This document shows, one piece after another, positions 4,687-52,768 of a stretch of DNA of 64,000 bases. How positions within the stretch are numbered: the stretch's first letter is position 1; every line of letters begins with the position of its first letter. Under the pieces are notes generated by a model. That model saw only the letters and a program-made list of their open reading frames with translations. It did not search any database and was not told the DNA's origin. A program made the translations under genes and the position numbers. The DNA lies in NCBI RefSeq assembly GCF_004114615.1, contig NZ_CP035300.1:2046001-2110000 (forward strand). Direction: 5' to 3'. This DNA is from Dyella sp. M7H15-1. GTDB taxonomy: Bacteria > Pseudomonadota > Gammaproteobacteria > Xanthomonadales > Rhodanobacteraceae.

Positions 4687-5487
4687 ATGAATATCAAGAC
4701 GCTTGACAACACCGACCCCCTGATCATCGCCAGCAAAAACTACGGCTCGCGCCTGCTGACCGGCACCGGCAAGTACAAGGACTTGGACGAAACTCGCCGC
4801 GCCACCCAGGCCGCGGGCGCCGAGATCGTCACTGCCGCCATCCGCCGCGTGAACCTTGGCCAGGATCCCAACGCACCGAGCCTGCTCGATGCCCTGCCCC
4901 CGCACGAATTCACCCTGCTGCCCAATACCGCCGGCTGTTATAACGCGGTCGATGCCGTGCGTACCTGTAAGCTGGCGCGCGAGTTGCTGAATGGCCACAA
5001 GCTGGTGAAGCTGGAAGTGCTGGGCGACGAACGCACGCTGTTCCCGGATGTGGTGGAAACCCTGAAGGCCGCCGAACAGCTCGTCGTCGACGGCTTCGAC
5101 GTGATGGTCTACACCAGCGACGATCCGATCCTGGCGCGCAAGCTGGAAGAGATTGGCTGCGTGGCAGTGATGCCGCTGGCCGCACCCATCGGCTCCGGCC
5201 TTGGCATCCAGAACCGCTACAACCTGCTGGAAATCATCGAGAACGCCAAGGTGCCGATCATCGTCGACGCTGGCGTGGGCACCGCTTCCGATGCGGCGAT
5301 CGCGATGGAACTTGGCTGCGACGGCGTACTGATGAATACCGCCATTGCCGGCGCCAAGGATCCGGTGCTGATGGCCCATGCGATGAAGCTGGCCATCGAA
5401 GCCGGCCGTGCCGCATTCCGTGCTGGCCGCATTCCGCGCAAACGCTTTGCCTCGGCTTCCAGCCCGATCGACGGCACCATCGGCTGA
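4687..5487 (+). CDS. thiG: Thiazole synthase ThiG
   Basis: TIM-barrel enzyme that condenses 1-deoxy-D-xylulose 5-phosphate, dehydroglycine and the ThiS thiocarboxylate into the thiazole phosphate moiety of thiamine. It has 266 residues, normal for the family. Visible signatures are the N-terminal [12 protein letters not shown], the Schiff-base lysine region [16 protein letters not shown], the [14 protein letters not shown] loop, and the phosphate-binding end [31 protein letters not shown]. The stop codon overlaps the trmB start by one base (TGATG), which implies translational coupling in a thiS-thiG-trmB unit. Confidence 0.97.
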
Positions 5488-47301: not shown

Positions 47302-47982
47302 CTACGGCCGAGAGTGCGCTGGTGACAGCAGCCGCCCGCCCATGGCGGCATTCAGGCCAACCACGATCACCACCGCCAGCGCGTGCACCAGCAGGTCCGA
47401 CGCCGTGGCATCGAAGTTATGCACGATCTCCAGCAGGCAGGCTGACGCCGAAGCGCTGGCCAAACCCACCAGCACCGCCGTCAGCACTGGTCGCAGCGGA
47501 CAGGCGCGTCGCAGCAGCCAGATCAACAGGCCCGACAGCGGGATCGAAAAGCCAACGATGAAGATTAGGCAATCGTTGGCGCCGTGCAGATCCATCACAG
47601 GCATGCCGGGAATGTGCGCACGCAGACAACCCAGGCCACTGGCGCCGACCCACAACAAGGCACCCGGCACCGGTACCCATGCCCATAACAAGGAGCGCCC
47701 CGGCACCGCGAGTACGAAGGCTGCGATGGTCGCCGTGATGGCAGTGAGCACCGCGCCGCAGGCAGCCCAACCAAGATCCGGCGCAACCACCCAACGATGC
47801 AGCATGGTGCGGGCGCCATGATGCATAAGCAGCACCCCGGCCATGACCACCACCACCGCCAGCCAGCCGAGCGCGCGCCGCCACGGCGGCAGCAAGCGCC
47901 GCACCGGCGTCAGCTCGGCGCCGAGCGCGTCGATCAGAGCTTGATGGCGTGATGCATTAGACATCGGGTTCAGGCTATCCAT
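47302..47982 (-). CDS. nrsF: NrsF-like (DUF1109) membrane anti-sigma factor
   Basis: A 226-residue protein with six hydrophobic segments (roughly 38-56, 68-90, 96-115, 138-158, 168-188 and 195-212). It matches the DUF1109/NrsF family of membrane anti-sigma factors encoded after SigF-type ECF sigma genes. Short N-terminal cytoplasmic part (HQALIDALGAELTPVRRL). It overlaps the sigma gene stop by eight bases. Cysteines are visible (GCLRA, RRACPLR), which in this family could be redox or metal sensors, though this is inferred. Confidence 0.88.
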   Translation of the reverse strand: MDSLNPMSNASRHQALIDALGAELTPVRRLLPPWRRALGWLAVVVVMAGVLLMHHGARTMLHRWVVAPDLGWAACGAVLTAITATIAAFVLAVPGRSLLWAWVPVPGALLWVGASGLGCLRAHIPGMPVMDLHGANDCLIFIVGFSIPLSGLLIWLLRRACPLRPVLTAVLVGLASASASACLLEIVHNFDATASDLLVHALAVVIVVGLNAAMGGRLLSPAHSRP

Positions 47983-48646
47983 TCAAACGGTCACGCAAGG
48001 TTTTCAGTGCGCGGTGCAGATTCACTTTCAAAGCACCAGTCTTGCGGCCGGTGCTTTCGGCGGCCTCGGCCAGCGAGCGCTCCTTTAAACCAAGCTGCTC
48101 GACCGCCTCGCGCTGACCGGGCGGCAAGGTGTCGATCGCCTCGCGCAAGCGCTTGGCCTCCTGCTCGCGTTCCGTACCAACACTGGCATCGTCGCGATCA
48201 GCATGGGTCTCGTAGGCTAGCTCATCATGCACTTCGCGCCGGCCGTGCCGGCCATGGCTGCGCAGCACATCGATGGCGCGCCGGCTGGCAATGGCCGACA
48301 GCCAAGCATCATAAGAACGTGCCGGGTCGAAGGTATGGCGTACGCGATGCACGGTCAGCAGGGTTTCCTGCACCACGTCATCCAGCGCATCCACGGCCAC
48401 GCCCTGCCGCCTTGCCACCGCACGAATCAAAGCCACCGAATCGCTCAACAGACGCGAGTAGGCGCGCTGGTCGCCGGCTTGCGCGTCGGCCATCCACGCT
48501 GCCCGCTGCCGGTCAGCCTGTTCGTTGGCACGGATGGATTCGGTGGACACAGCCTTGACAGTACCCGCGGCCCTGTTTGGAAGCCCGCGTAGTAAGGCCC
48601 ACGGACCTTCAAAGGTCAAGGCATCGACGGTCAGGGACTGCGGCAT
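47975..48646 (-). CDS. sigF: ECF sigma factor, SigF type
   Basis: A 223-residue extracytoplasmic-function sigma factor. Region 2 includes AYSRLLSDSVALIRAVARRQ and LDDVVQETLLTVHRVRHTFD then YDAWLSAIASRRAIDVLR. Region 4 includes LPPGQREAVEQLGLKERSLAEAAESTG and LKVNLHRALKTLR. It sits upstream of and overlapping its NrsF-like anti-sigma. A promoter of the SigF type (GTAACC-N16-CGAATA) lies just upstream, implying autoregulation, and a twin promoter faces dipZ. The ATG at 48646 lies about 25 bases after the expected transcript start. Confidence 0.93.
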   Translation of the reverse strand: MPQSLTVDALTFEGPWALLRGLPNRAAGTVKAVSTESIRANEQADRQRAAWMADAQAGDQRAYSRLLSDSVALIRAVARRQGVAVDALDDVVQETLLTVHRVRHTFDPARSYDAWLSAIASRRAIDVLRSHGRHGRREVHDELAYETHADRDDASVGTEREQEAKRLREAIDTLPPGQREAVEQLGLKERSLAEAAESTGRKTGALKVNLHRALKTLRDRLNG

Positions 48647-48676: not shown

Positions 48677-48704
48677 TATTCGCCACACTAGTGACCGGGG
48701 TTAC
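48677..48704 (-). promoter_or_regulatory. SigF-type promoter for sigF-nrsF
   Basis: On the minus strand: GTAACC (48704-48699), 16-base spacer, CGAATA (48682-48677). This matches the -35 GTAACC and -10 CGAA pattern with 16-bp spacing known for Caulobacter SigF. Expected start near 48670, followed by a short leader to the sigF ATG at 48646. Confidence 0.8.
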
Positions 48705-48730
48705 ACCGCAGGCAGAGCGGGGCACACTTT

Positions 48731-48758
48731 GTAACGGCTTCGCACCAAGCAGCGAATA
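48731..48758 (+). promoter_or_regulatory. SigF-type promoter for dipZ-msrB
   Basis: On the plus strand: GTAACG (48731-48736), 16-base spacer, CGAATA (48753-48758). It is the near twin of the sigF promoter on the opposite strand, differing in one -35 base. Expected start near 48765, 25 bp before the dipZ ATG at 48790. Confidence 0.78.
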
Positions 48759-48789: not shown

Positions 48790-50514
48790 ATGATCTTGCT
48801 GATCCTTGCTTTCCTGGGTGGCGTGCTGACCATTCTCAGCCCGTGCATCCTTCCCGTATTGCCGTTCGTATTTGCCCGCGCCGACCGGCCGTTCGCACGC
48901 AACAGCCTGCCGATGCTGCTCGGCATGGCGCTCACGTTCGCGCTGGTTGCCACTTTGGCTGCCGTCGGCGGCGGTTGGGCAGTGCGCGCCAATCAATATG
49001 GACGTTACCTTGCACTGGCCATGCTGGCGGTGCTTGGCTTCACACTGCTCTCCACGCATGTCGCCGAGTGGACCACCCGTCCTTTTGTAAAGCTGGGCAA
49101 TCGACTGAGCGCACGTTCGGAAACGCAACACGATTCCATATGGTCCGCCGCAGGATGGGGTGTAGCCACCGGCTTGCTGTGGGCTCCCTGCGCCGGCCCA
49201 ATTCTGGGATTGCTATTGACCGGCGCGGCTATCCATGGCGCCAGCGTGCAAACCACTTTATTGTTGCTTACCTATGCAGCCGGCGCGGCCGTTTCCCTGG
49301 CACTCGCACTACTGATTGGAGGCCGCGTATTCGCCTTGATGAAGCGCTCGCTCGGTGCGGGGGAATGGATACGTCGCGCATTGGGCGCACTGGTGCTTGC
49401 TGGCGTGGTTGCCGTTGCAATGGGGGTCGACACAGGACTGCTTACACGCATCTCGTTGGCGAGCACCAGCGACATCGAACAGACACTGATCAACGCTGTG
49501 CGCCCCACGCCCGTTGCAGCATCACCCACTCCCAAAGTGGGCGACGCATTGCCGATCGAGGGCGAATTTCCATCACTCGCCGGCGCCACGCAGTGGTTCA
49601 ACAGTTCGCCACTTACCCCTGAATCGTTACGCGGCAAAGTGGTGCTGGTGGATTTCTGGACCTACTCCTGCATCAACTGCATCCGCTCACTACCTTATGT
49701 GAATGCCTGGGCGAAGAAATATCGTGATCACGGACTGGTGGTGATCGGCGTGCACTCACCGGAATTCGCCTTCGAGAAAGATCCTGCCAATGTTGCCAGG
49801 GCGATCAAAGATTTTGGCATTGGCTACCCGGTCGCCGTGGATAGCGACTACGCGATCTGGCAAGCCTTCCACAACGAATACTGGCCGGCACATTACTTTA
49901 TCGACGCGCATGGGCAGATTCGCGCGCACCATTTCGGCGAAGGCGACTACATGGGCAGTGAAGACATGATCCGCCGCCTGCTAACGGACGCAGGCTACAA
50001 AAATCTGCCTGGCGGCCATGTACAACCTGGCGCCACCGGCGCGGAAGCGGCCGGCTCCGGCGATGCCATCCGTTCACCGGAAACCTATGTAGGTTATGCC
50101 CGCAGCGAGCATTTCATCGGTGGACAGATGGCGCACGACGATAGCTGGCAGTACCGCGCACCCAACACATTGCAAATCAACCAATGGGCGCTCAACGGCA
50201 ACTGGACAGTCGGCGCACAAAGCGCCGCGCTGGATAAAACCGGTGGCGGCATCGTGTATCGCTTCCGTGGCCGCGATCTGCATCTTGTGCTTGGCCCAGG
50301 CAAGGATGGCAAGCCCGTGCGCTTCCGCGTCACCCTCGACGGTAAGGCACCGGGCGACGATCACGGCGCGGATACCGATGCCGATGGCAACGGCACCGTC
50401 ACCCACCAACGCTTGTATCAGCTCGTGCGCCAGGCACACGGCACGGGTGAGCGCGTCTTCGAAATCACCTTCCTCGACCCAGATGTACACGCTTACGCCT
50501 TTACCTTCGGCTAA
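48790..50514 (+). CDS. dipZ: DipZ: cytochrome c biogenesis/thiol-disulfide membrane protein with thioredoxin domain
   Basis: A 574-residue protein. The first part (about 1-230) is a CcdA/DsbD-like membrane domain with the two conserved cysteines in SPCILPVLPFV and LLWAPCAGPILG. Next comes an extracytoplasmic TlpA-like thioredoxin domain (about 265-405) with active site YSCINCIRSLP, and a C-terminal beta-sandwich (about 430-574; SEHFIGGQMAHDDSWQY, then VFEITFLDPDVHAYAFTFG region). This three-part layout is that of DipZ. It should carry electrons from the cytoplasm to extracytoplasmic partners. The ATG at 48790 is chosen because the membrane domain begins there (MILLILAFLGGVLTILSPC). Confidence 0.93.
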   Translation: MILLILAFLGGVLTILSPCILPVLPFVFARADRPFARNSLPMLLGMALTFALVATLAAVGGGWAVRANQYGRYLALAMLAVLGFTLLSTHVAEWTTRPFVKLGNRLSARSETQHDSIWSAAGWGVATGLLWAPCAGPILGLLLTGAAIHGASVQTTLLLLTYAAGAAVSLALALLIGGRVFALMKRSLGAGEWIRRALGALVLAGVVAVAMGVDTGLLTRISLASTSDIEQTLINAVRPTPVAASPTPKVGDALPIEGEFPSLAGATQWFNSSPLTPESLRGKVVLVDFWTYSCINCIRSLPYVNAWAKKYRDHGLVVIGVHSPEFAFEKDPANVARAIKDFGIGYPVAVDSDYAIWQAFHNEYWPAHYFIDAHGQIRAHHFGEGDYMGSEDMIRRLLTDAGYKNLPGGHVQPGATGAEAAGSGDAIRSPETYVGYARSEHFIGGQMAHDDSWQYRAPNTLQINQWALNGNWTVGAQSAALDKTGGGIVYRFRGRDLHLVLGPGKDGKPVRFRVTLDGKAPGDDHGADTDADGNGTVTHQRLYQLVRQAHGTGERVFEITFLDPDVHAYAFTFG

Positions 50515-50573
50515 GAGATGCTCTGATCTATTCCACGCACCCGTCACCGCACTGCATGAAACAGGAGATTCCC

Positions 50574-51409: not shown

Positions 51410-52768
51410 ATGAACCCCGCAATTTCAACTGGACTTACTGGCACTTATCAGGTAGCGCAAGCACTGGCATCAAAAGAGCCGGCTCCATCGACAAATAGTG
51501 AACCCCAAGGATTGAAGGCTCTCTCGGATCCAAAAATATTCGCATTGGATGCCCATGACATAGACCGTCGTAATTCGGTCATGGAAACATGTCGATCCCT
51601 AACAAATCATTCAGATGCCCCGCATCGTATATGTGAGATAAATATTGTTAAGGCACATGACAATCTAAGTCTAGAATTCAGCGACGATCCGTCGACAAAA
51701 CCAATAGCTACCCTAACCGATATTCAGGCCGACTTTAAGAACGACGCCCATGCGAAAGCGCAGATCGTTGATCTGGCAGAAAACGTATTGCAGCAGTCAG
51801 GTCAACTTCAATATCTCAATGATAATATCGATTCCTTCACAAAAGAAGGATTCCATCCGGTTATAACCATCGATTATTATGGCGATAGAAAAACCGACGT
51901 AAATACAATAGGCTTCCATAGAGATTCCACGGATTCGACGCTTTTTGTGGATTTGATATATAATACTAACCACCCCATTGATGGTCCTGAATATTTAAAA
52001 AGCGGAACGTTGGATCAAGACTATTTCAAAGAATTTGTCCAACCCAATATGCCGACCACCGCATTAGAGCACATCAACGCGGAAAGCATTGAGCATGATG
52101 GCGCGAATCAAAAAATTAAGTTGTGCCGAATTCCAGCAGACGGAGTGGTCGGCTTCACTGATGCACTTGTTTTTCATTCAACACCCCAAGAAGCGAGTCG
52201 AGCCGTTCTTAAAGAAGATCTCTTCGGTCATTTGAACAATGATTCAGGCAACAATTCCGATATTAATGAATATGCATTCAAACACGCATATCGTTTAGAA
52301 AACCCTGGATCAATTAAAGGTGAAGAATTAGAAAATCTTGAAGAATACGTGGAAAATATTTCTCCATGGAATAAGAGAAATTTCGATGAAATTTCAGAAA
52401 CATTCAGGCCTATTGCAAAGCTTATACTAAACTCGCGTGACGGTGATAAGATATATAAAATTGACGTACAAGAAGCCATGATCGAACATGGTTTTGGTGT
52501 GGAAGCTGCTCAAGACTACGCAGATACACTTTATCACAGGACCCTTCGTCAAAACCCACTAGATGAAGTAGCGCTAATCAATTGTGGAAACACCTGTCAT
52601 TCGCGATTGACCTCTACATCTTTTCCGCTCCCCGGAAAAATGGAAAGAGAGAAGAGTCTTGAGCGCACTGGTGCTCAGGGACGCAACCAAGCGCCATTAA
52701 ATAACGGTGCACAACCCAGAGAATTTTTACGTCTTTGGGTACAGTTCAAAAAGAGTGATCCTACGTAA
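51410..52768 (+). CDS. AT-rich orphan protein with dioxygenase-like HxD...H signature; candidate effector
   Basis: A 452-residue protein, probably horizontally acquired: its DNA is clearly more AT-rich than all neighbours. The N terminus (about 1-45) is polar, rich in Ser, Thr, Ala and Pro and without a signal peptide, as in type III effectors. The middle part shows H170 and D172 (GFHRDSTDSTLFVDLIY) and H256 (FTDALVFHSTPQEASR), with R264 eight residues later. This order resembles the metal triad and 2-oxoglutarate arginine of Fe(II) dioxygenases. The C-terminal third is charged and helical. No family is recognised with certainty, and no PIP-box-like motif is seen upstream. Confidence 0.6.
   Translation: MNPAISTGLTGTYQVAQALASKEPAPSTNSEPQGLKALSDPKIFALDAHDIDRRNSVMETCRSLTNHSDAPHRICEINIVKAHDNLSLEFSDDPSTKPIATLTDIQADFKNDAHAKAQIVDLAENVLQQSGQLQYLNDNIDSFTKEGFHPVITIDYYGDRKTDVNTIGFHRDSTDSTLFVDLIYNTNHPIDGPEYLKSGTLDQDYFKEFVQPNMPTTALEHINAESIEHDGANQKIKLCRIPADGVVGFTDALVFHSTPQEASRAVLKEDLFGHLNNDSGNNSDINEYAFKHAYRLENPGSIKGEELENLEEYVENISPWNKRNFDEISETFRPIAKLILNSRDGDKIYKIDVQEAMIEHGFGVEAAQDYADTLYHRTLRQNPLDEVALINCGNTCHSRLTSTSFPLPGKMEREKSLERTGAQGRNQAPLNNGAQPREFLRLWVQFKKSDPT

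What the first reader, a model, noticed from the sequence alone, without database searches (positions are those of the whole stretch)
48677..48758. Two divergent SigF-type promoters control sigF-nrsF and dipZ-msrB
GTAACC-N16-CGAATA on the minus strand and GTAACG-N16-CGAATA on the plus strand face away from each other in one short spacer. Both have exactly 16 bases between the hexamers and both sit at a sensible distance from a start codon. They match the Caulobacter SigF pattern (GTAACC-N16-CGAA, recalled from the literature). The sigma gene would be autoregulated and would switch on a membrane thiol carrier (DipZ) plus an exported MsrB. This predicts a small dedicated regulon for extracytoplasmic methionine-sulfoxide repair controlled by a NrsF-type membrane sensor.
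Basis: partly seen in the sequence, partly recalled or inferred. Interest (0 to 1): 0.85.

Follow-up and report, generated by a model that had tools for sequence, protein, structure and literature searches.

The report
Divergent SigF promoters for methionine-repair genes
A stress sigma factor, its membrane sensor and genes for repairing oxidised methionine outside the cytoplasm share one kind of promoter that relatives keep, so this looks like a dedicated repair regulon of a known type with a new make-up.

Summary
Two divergent GTAAC[C/G]-N16-CGAATA sites end 30 and 31 nt before the starts of sigF-nrsF and dipZ-msrB. GTAAC-N17-CGAATA occurs 4 times in the 3.52-Mb genome (reversed control 0): these two, one 28 nt before an exported msrA, one before a fimbrial-looking gene. 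In 69 genomes with this sigma factor (own included) the site precedes sigF in 69 of 69 and dipZ in 61 of 61 where dipZ was found (strict in 57, spacer 15 in 4). It precedes msrA in 67 of 67 tested sigF+ genomes and in 0 of 23 tested sigF- genomes. An unguided dyad search returns the same motif first. Further predicted members: a divergent thioredoxin/CcdA-like pair in the genus and, in 18 of 68 genomes read, an exported methionine-rich MXKDX-type peptide after nrsF. The kind is known: alpha- and betaproteobacterial SigF/NrsF systems use this promoter and several control Msr enzymes. New are the family-wide thiol-driven MsrA+MsrB regulon and an NrsF branch with another periplasmic cysteine pair (C119, C138), the second classic sensing cysteine being absent. 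No transcript or mutant data exist; all regulation is inferred.

The parts
48677..48704 (-). predicted SigF promoter of sigF-nrsF, GTAACC-N16-CGAATA
   Evidence: strict motif upstream of sigF in 69 of 69 genomes
48731..48758 (+). predicted SigF promoter of dipZ-msrB, GTAACG-N16-CGAATA
   Evidence: upstream of dipZ in 57 of 61 strictly and 4 of 61 with spacer 15
47975..48646 (-). sigF-like ECF sigma factor, 223 aa
   Evidence: PF04542 and PF08281 above cut-off; ORF
47302..47982 (-). nrsF-like membrane anti-sigma factor, 226 aa, overlaps the end of sigF
   Evidence: PF06532, 76.6 bits against cut-off 26.8; about six hydrophobic segments
48790..50514 (+). dipZ-like membrane thiol carrier: DsbD_TM + Redoxin (CxxC 294/297) + Thioredoxin_10, 574 aa
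50574..51200 (+). exported or anchored MsrB, Tat-like RR signal (by eye), zinc-type, catalytic C194; a start at 50556 is also possible
   Evidence: PF01641 155 bits, TIGR00357 162 bits; alignment A1

Best explanation
The spacer holds two back-to-back promoters for the sigma factor encoded beside it. NrsF holds SigF at the inner membrane. Damage at the periplasmic face (reactive chlorine, peroxide or metal; which one is not known) inactivates NrsF through periplasmic cysteines and SigF is released. SigF then transcribes its own operon and dipZ-msrB, and elsewhere exported msrA and a ccdA-like gene; in genus relatives also an exported thioredoxin, and in part of the family a methionine-rich MXKDX-type peptide. 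The products form one thiol-driven line for periplasmic methionine-sulfoxide repair: DipZ and CcdA/Trx bring electrons across the membrane, MsrA and MsrB reduce S- and R-sulfoxides, and the MXKDX peptide is a renewable sink. Shown by sequence: the motifs, their conservation and co-occurrence with sigF, and the gene identities. Inferred: SigF binding, induction, export, electron flow and sensing chemistry.
For: Motif pair in place. sigF motif 69 of 69, dipZ 57 of 61 strict plus 4 of 61 with N15; of 8 genomes without dipZ in the stretch read, 6 have msrB opposite sigF and the motif precedes it in 6 of 6. Exhaustive dyad search over the same upstreams ranks GTAAC-17-CGAA first for both genes; 200 scrambled decoys reach at most 1 of 69 and 0 of 61. 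msrA 67 of 67 sigF+, 0 of 23 sigF-. ccdA 12 of 12 in the genus; 0 of 14 ccdA paralogues. Met-rich peptide gene after nrsF in 18 of 68 genomes read; strict motif before it in 15, and in the other three (G069, G009, and G042 read as L043) when the later ATG is taken. Literature (passages): the same promoter in Caulobacter SigF (PMC3511200), Bradyrhizobium EcfF, whose regulon holds Msr enzymes plus a DsbD-like protein and a periplasmic thioredoxin (PMC3420878), and Brucella BcrS (PMC8315932).
Against: No expression data. The genomes are related, so the counts are not independent trials; the nearest to an independent contrast is genus g24 (3 tested sigF+ with motif, 4 tested sigF- without, one of these read only to a contig end). 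The own genome's trx promoter is degenerate (CAAA for CGAA). In Caulobacter the msrA homologues did not respond, sigF itself is not strongly autoregulated under metal stress, and the inducer was chromium or cadmium, not oxidants (PMC3511200, abstract passage and section 6). The fourth CGAATA hit of the genome precedes a fimbrial-looking gene that the model does not explain, and 12 of the 69 genus hits have no recognisable target. msrB2 has the motif in only 3 of 9 loci scanned. The sigF start is extrapolated in the relatives; in some the motif would overlap it (distances 11-76 nt).
Confidence: 0.88

Rival explanations
1. The two motifs are promoters, but of another ECF sigma factor with the same specificity; the neighbouring SigF is only one of several users.
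For: In Caulobacter and Brucella the sigF promoter keeps activity without SigF, so another factor contributes (PMC3511200, PMC8315932, passages). A classic SigF/NrsF locus in the same family (L310) carries the same kind of motif pair.
Against: The own genome has one PF06532 match. The msrA motif is absent in all 10 tested genomes that have the classic NrsF type and in the other 13 tested sigF- genomes.
Confidence: 0.08
2. The sites are a conserved binding site for a classical regulator rather than -35/-10 elements.
For: Conservation by itself does not distinguish binding sites from promoters.
Against: Fixed spacing and orientation; the -35 starts 55-62 nt before the dipZ ATG in 55 of 57 strict cases whatever the intergenic gap; the motif matches 5'-mapped SigF-type promoters; co-occurrence with the sigma gene.
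Confidence: 0.03
3. Chance matches.
For: GTAACS-N16-CGAA has 10 genome hits against 27 for its reversed control, so most hits of the short pattern are noise; the hit inside dipZ is an example.
Against: 69 of 69 and 61 of 61 conservation, decoys near zero.
Confidence: 0.01

Closest known systems
Bradyrhizobium japonicum EcfF-OsrA (PMC3420878, passages read)
   Same: Sigma plus DUF1109 anti-sigma, autoregulated, GTAAC-type promoter; the regulon holds MetSO reductases with a DsbD-like protein (Bll1027) and a membrane-anchored periplasmic thioredoxin (Bll1026) proposed to feed one of them.
   Different: There the listed targets lie at other loci; here dipZ-msrB (or msrB) is mostly divergent from sigF, and NrsF has C119/C138 where OsrA has C129/C179.
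Caulobacter crescentus SigF-NrsF (PMC3511200, passages and section 6 read)
   Same: Promoter GTAACC-N16-CGAA, six-helix membrane NrsF, a target operon next to sigF.
   Different: Its regulon is YedY, DUF692/DUF2063/DUF2282 and DoxX genes; msrA homologues did not respond; metal-induced.
SigF-NrsF-MrpX-YedYZ of (per)chlorate reducers such as Azospira suillum (PMC4623255 and PMC8315932 passages; the primary paper is not held and was not read)
   Same: Methionine-rich periplasmic peptide plus MetSO reductase under SigF/NrsF; two related islands also carry MsrA and MsrB homologues predicted to be exported.
   Different: YedYZ there; here thiol-driven MsrA/MsrB with DipZ and CcdA/Trx.
Brucella melitensis BcrS-AbcS (PMC8315932, passages read)
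   Same: ECF16 sigma, DUF1109 anti-sigma, TGTAAC promoter, BcrX (MrpX homologue), HOCl response.
   Different: BcrPQ are MsrP/MsrQ homologues.
Haemophilus influenzae RpoE2-HrsE and Neisseria SigE (PMC7907618, passages read)
   Same: ECF sigma factor driving periplasmic MsrAB and a DoxX cluster; HOCl-linked in Haemophilus.
   Different: Small cytoplasmic anti-sigma factor (67 aa in Haemophilus), not NrsF.

Membership tests
SigF/NrsF (ECF16-type) system | ECF sigma factor with regions 2 and 4 only | tested here: met
   PF04542 and PF08281 above cut-off; the only other Pfam match is PF04545, also region 4, just under its cut-off
SigF/NrsF (ECF16-type) system | adjacent six-helix DUF1109/PF06532 anti-sigma gene | tested here: met
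   PF06532 76.6 bits; hydropathy gives about six segments. Much weaker than the classic type in the same family (E 4e-21 against about 1e-70)
SigF/NrsF (ECF16-type) system | promoter GTAACC-N16-CGAA at sigF and targets | tested here: met
SigF/NrsF (ECF16-type) system | both conserved cysteines of the characterised anti-sigma factors (C131/C181, C129/C179) | tested here: not met
   First one present (C138, 70 of 70 rows); at the second the window has V187-H188 and no Cys. Another Cys, C119, is invariant in this branch (69 of 70 rows, W in the one classic row). The classic row is one genome (G076), used in place of the named proteins, which were not fetched
SigF/NrsF (ECF16-type) system | assignment to ECF16 by the ECF classification models | not testable with these tools
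   no such model library on hand
SigF/NrsF (ECF16-type) system | NrsF binds and inhibits SigF | not testable with these tools
   needs two-hybrid or deletion
MXKDX / MrpX-like methionine sink (relatives only, not in the window) | small protein of the MXKDX repeat family | tested here: met
   TIGR02953 over cut-off in 3 of 3 proteins scanned, of 18 found
MsrB | SelR domain with catalytic Cys | tested here: met
   TIGR00357 162 bits; C194 invariant in 23 of 23 rows

The most novel reading that the evidence does not exclude
This branch is a closed redox loop. NrsF senses through a new periplasmic pair (C119-C138 at the ends of one loop) that forms a disulfide under oxidant; the DipZ made from the divergent promoter both feeds the Msr enzymes and re-reduces that pair, switching the response off once repair has caught up. 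In part of the family an MXKDX peptide is the sacrificial substrate, so MXKDX peptides there would be recyclable methionine sinks run by thiol-driven Msr enzymes rather than by MsrPQ.
Probability: 0.25. Interest if true: 0.7.

Novelty: new variant of a known kind. Interest (0 to 1): 0.52.

Why it matters
It gives a complete, testable regulon for repair of methionine outside the cytoplasm in a gammaproteobacterial family where I found none described in the held library. The set (both Msr types, two membrane electron importers, a methionine sink) ties little-studied genes, MXKDX peptides among them, to one predicted signal. A sensor branch with a different cysteine pair lets one ask which cysteines of NrsF-type sensors read the oxidant.

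Tried and rejected
The short pattern GTAACS-N16-CGAA as a genome-wide predictor was rejected: 10 hits against 27 for its reversed control. The hit at 49605-49630 inside dipZ was rejected: no counterpart inside dipZ in the other loci. The fourth CGAATA hit of the genome, before a fimbrial-looking gene (L057/L090), is left as unexplained or chance. Spacer-15 hits in the own genome (15 hits, reversed control 48) were only listed, not followed. A methionine-rich gene beside nrsF in the own genome: none in the 827 nt read after it; the rest of the genome was not searched for one. The extra MsrB cysteine pair (C62, C74) as a general resolving pair was rejected: absent together in 5 of 23 rows. A structure of NrsF to measure the C119-C138 distance was not obtained. 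The class-wide search (E <= 1e-35) found this sigma factor only in the own genome among 369 sampled genomes; weaker relatives were not sought there. A first count of methionine-rich genes (15) was replaced by 18 of 68.

Full report
Observation. The two sites are present as described. In 64 kb the pattern GTAACS-N16-CGAA is expected 0.10 times and occurs 3 times, two of them divergent in one 82-nt spacer. Over the genome (G000, 3,523,985 bases, window at C1:2046001-2110000) GTAAC-N17-CGAATA occurs 4 times, its reversed control 0 times. One of the other two sites ends 28 nt before an exported msrA (L056). The other precedes a fimbrial-looking gene (L057). In 16 genus genomes the pattern has 69 hits against 18 for the control. 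By my reading, 39 of the 69 lie at sigF, dipZ, msrA, trx or ccdA, 10 before other genes (3 cupin/AraC, 2 DoxX-like, msrB2, a second MsrA, a Cys-rich protein, one DUF1223-looking, one fimbrial-looking), 12 before nothing I recognise, and 8 were not examined.

Genes. nrsF is PF06532, the sigma factor has regions 2 and 4, DipZ is DsbD_TM + Redoxin + Thioredoxin_10, MsrB is SelR. DipZ has four cysteines: C19 and C134 in the membrane part and C294/C297 in the thioredoxin part. In 23 MsrB rows (window plus 22 of the 23 named loci with an msrB match; L046, a partial match, was left out) the catalytic C194 and the four zinc-type cysteines are invariant, R13 of the twin-arginine-like signal too, R12 nearly so. 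MsrA looks like a lipoprotein by eye; of 30 MsrA models 25 have only two cysteines, the lipobox-like one and the catalytic one, and 5 (L105, L118, L120, L126, L130) have extra ones before the lipobox, where the start codon is uncertain. Export is my reading of the N-termini; no signal-peptide program was run.

Conservation at the locus. A search of 147 family genomes (own included) finds the sigma factor in 75 at E <= 1e-20. I of them sigF+ (62% identity or more) and left out 6 with 34-38% identity (G006, G011, G076, G101, G112, G143). In all 69 the strict motif GTAAC-N17-CGAA lies at sigF, 11-76 nt before the extrapolated first residue; the small values mean that the extrapolated start is too early there. 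dipZ was found divergent in 61, strict motif in 57. The four others (G080, G115, G092, G094) have GTAACC-N15-CGAATA 57 nt before the start. Of the 57 strict sites 55 start 55-62 nt before the dipZ ATG; G135 has 72 and G145 has 87, and G145 also has an N15 site at 57 that may be the real one. The sigF-dipZ gap runs from 101 to 2015 nt. In 8 of 69 no dipZ was found in the stretch read: in 6 msrB lies in its place with the motif in 6 of 6, in 2 (G134, G124) there was nothing to test. The named loci are Dyella, Rhodanobacter and bins (one labelled Eremiobacteraeota), so the window is from a Dyella-like genome.

Unguided check. Scoring every 5-mer/gap 12-20/4-mer dyad in the upstreams puts GTAAC-17-CGAA first for sigF (69 of 69) and dipZ (57 of 61). 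200 scrambled decoys reach at most 1 of 69 and 0 of 61.

Co-occurrence. Upstream of the exported msrA orthologue (300 nt read) the motif is present in 67 of 67 tested sigF+ genomes; the other 2 of 69 (G069, G128) had no close msrA match and were not tested. It is present in 0 of 23 tested genomes out of the 78 not called sigF+, chosen for their close msrA matches. One of the 23 (G138) was read only to a contig end. Ten of the 23 carry the classic NrsF type instead. In genus g24 the three tested sigF+ genomes have the motif and the four tested sigF- genomes lack it. These are related genomes, not 90 independent trials.

Further members. In 12 genus genomes (own included) an exported thioredoxin and a CcdA-like importer form a second divergent pair: ccdA strict motif 12 of 12; trx strict 8, spacer 15 in 3, degenerate in the own genome; G040 of another genus has both. 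Fourteen ccdA paralogues examined have none. A cytoplasmic-type msrB2 has the motif in the 3 closest orthologues (G066, G092, G017) and in none of 6 more distant loci scanned. Three of these proteins were scanned and all match TIGR02953, pentapeptide MXKDX. The leader often folds into a hairpin.

Sensor. The NrsF alignment has 70 rows: 68 genomes of this branch, the window protein again, and one classic NrsF (G076). C138 (the C131/C129 type) is in 70 of 70 rows; C119 in 69 of 70 (W in the classic row); C161 in 55; a Cys beside the invariant His188 in 58, but Val in the window. Hydropathy with the positive-inside rule, my reading, puts C119 and C138 at the two ends of the third-to-fourth helix loop on the periplasmic face. 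Because the second classic cysteine was tested and not met, I file the system as SigF/NrsF-like, not as an ECF16 member.

Literature. Passages read: PMC3511200 (also section 6), PMC8315932, PMC3420878, PMC7907618, PMC4623255. They show the same promoter, the same sigma/anti-sigma type and, in several systems, Msr enzymes as targets; PMC3420878 already proposes a DsbD-like/thioredoxin feed of an Msr. The mechanism is therefore known in kind. Searches for a gammaproteobacterial SigF/NrsF regulon of this make-up found none in the held library; that library misses most subscription journals, so this is weak evidence.

Limits. No expression evidence; inducer unknown; NrsF structure not obtained; the own genome could be searched by pattern but not scanned with a weight matrix.

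Noticed in passing
L013, L014, L016, L017, L018, L022, L024, L274, L281, L284, L285, L291, L292, L296, L297, L299, L302, L306; L043, L047, L048: SigF-type promoter and methionine-rich MXKDX-type peptide gene directly after nrsF; the leader often begins with a stable hairpin a few nt after the -10.
   Followed up: partly
L191 2250-3544 (G000:C1:527749-529043): Divergent exported thioredoxin and CcdA-like importer in the window's own genome; ccdA has a strict SigF motif, trx a degenerate one.
   Followed up: yes
L069, L073, L193: Cupin/AraC-like regulator gene 30-37 nt after the CGAA of a GTAAC-N17-CGAATA site in three genus genomes (G080, G038, G051); only the L193 protein was scanned (Cupin_6).
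   Followed up: no
L065, L205: DoxX-like genes behind the same motif in G092 and G080; the L205 protein matches PF07681, L065 by eye. DoxX is a SigF target in Caulobacter (PMC3511200).
   Followed up: no
L243 (G017): A further divergent pair of SigF-type motifs, between msrB2 and a gene for a Cys-rich protein (CTQCGKCC near its start).
   Followed up: no
L038, L039, L040 at position 5409; L003 and L008 at 2087: A further strict motif inside the 5' part of sigF, on the sigF strand, in three genomes (L003/L038 and L008/L039 are the same contigs by length); internal promoter or coding coincidence.
   Followed up: no
window 51410-52768: 452-aa ORF after msrB without any Pfam or NCBIfam match.
   Followed up: no
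L310 (G076): Classic SigF/NrsF locus in the same family also has a divergent GTAACC motif pair, while msrA of that genome has none.
   Followed up: partly
alignment A1, window MsrB C62 and C74: Extra cysteine pair before the SelR domain, present together in 18 of 23 and absent together in 5 of 23 rows.
   Followed up: partly
L040: A contig labelled Candidatus Eremiobacteraeota carries a Dyella-like sigF-nrsF-dipZ-msrB locus (78-83% identity); probably a mislabelled or mixed bin.
   Followed up: no
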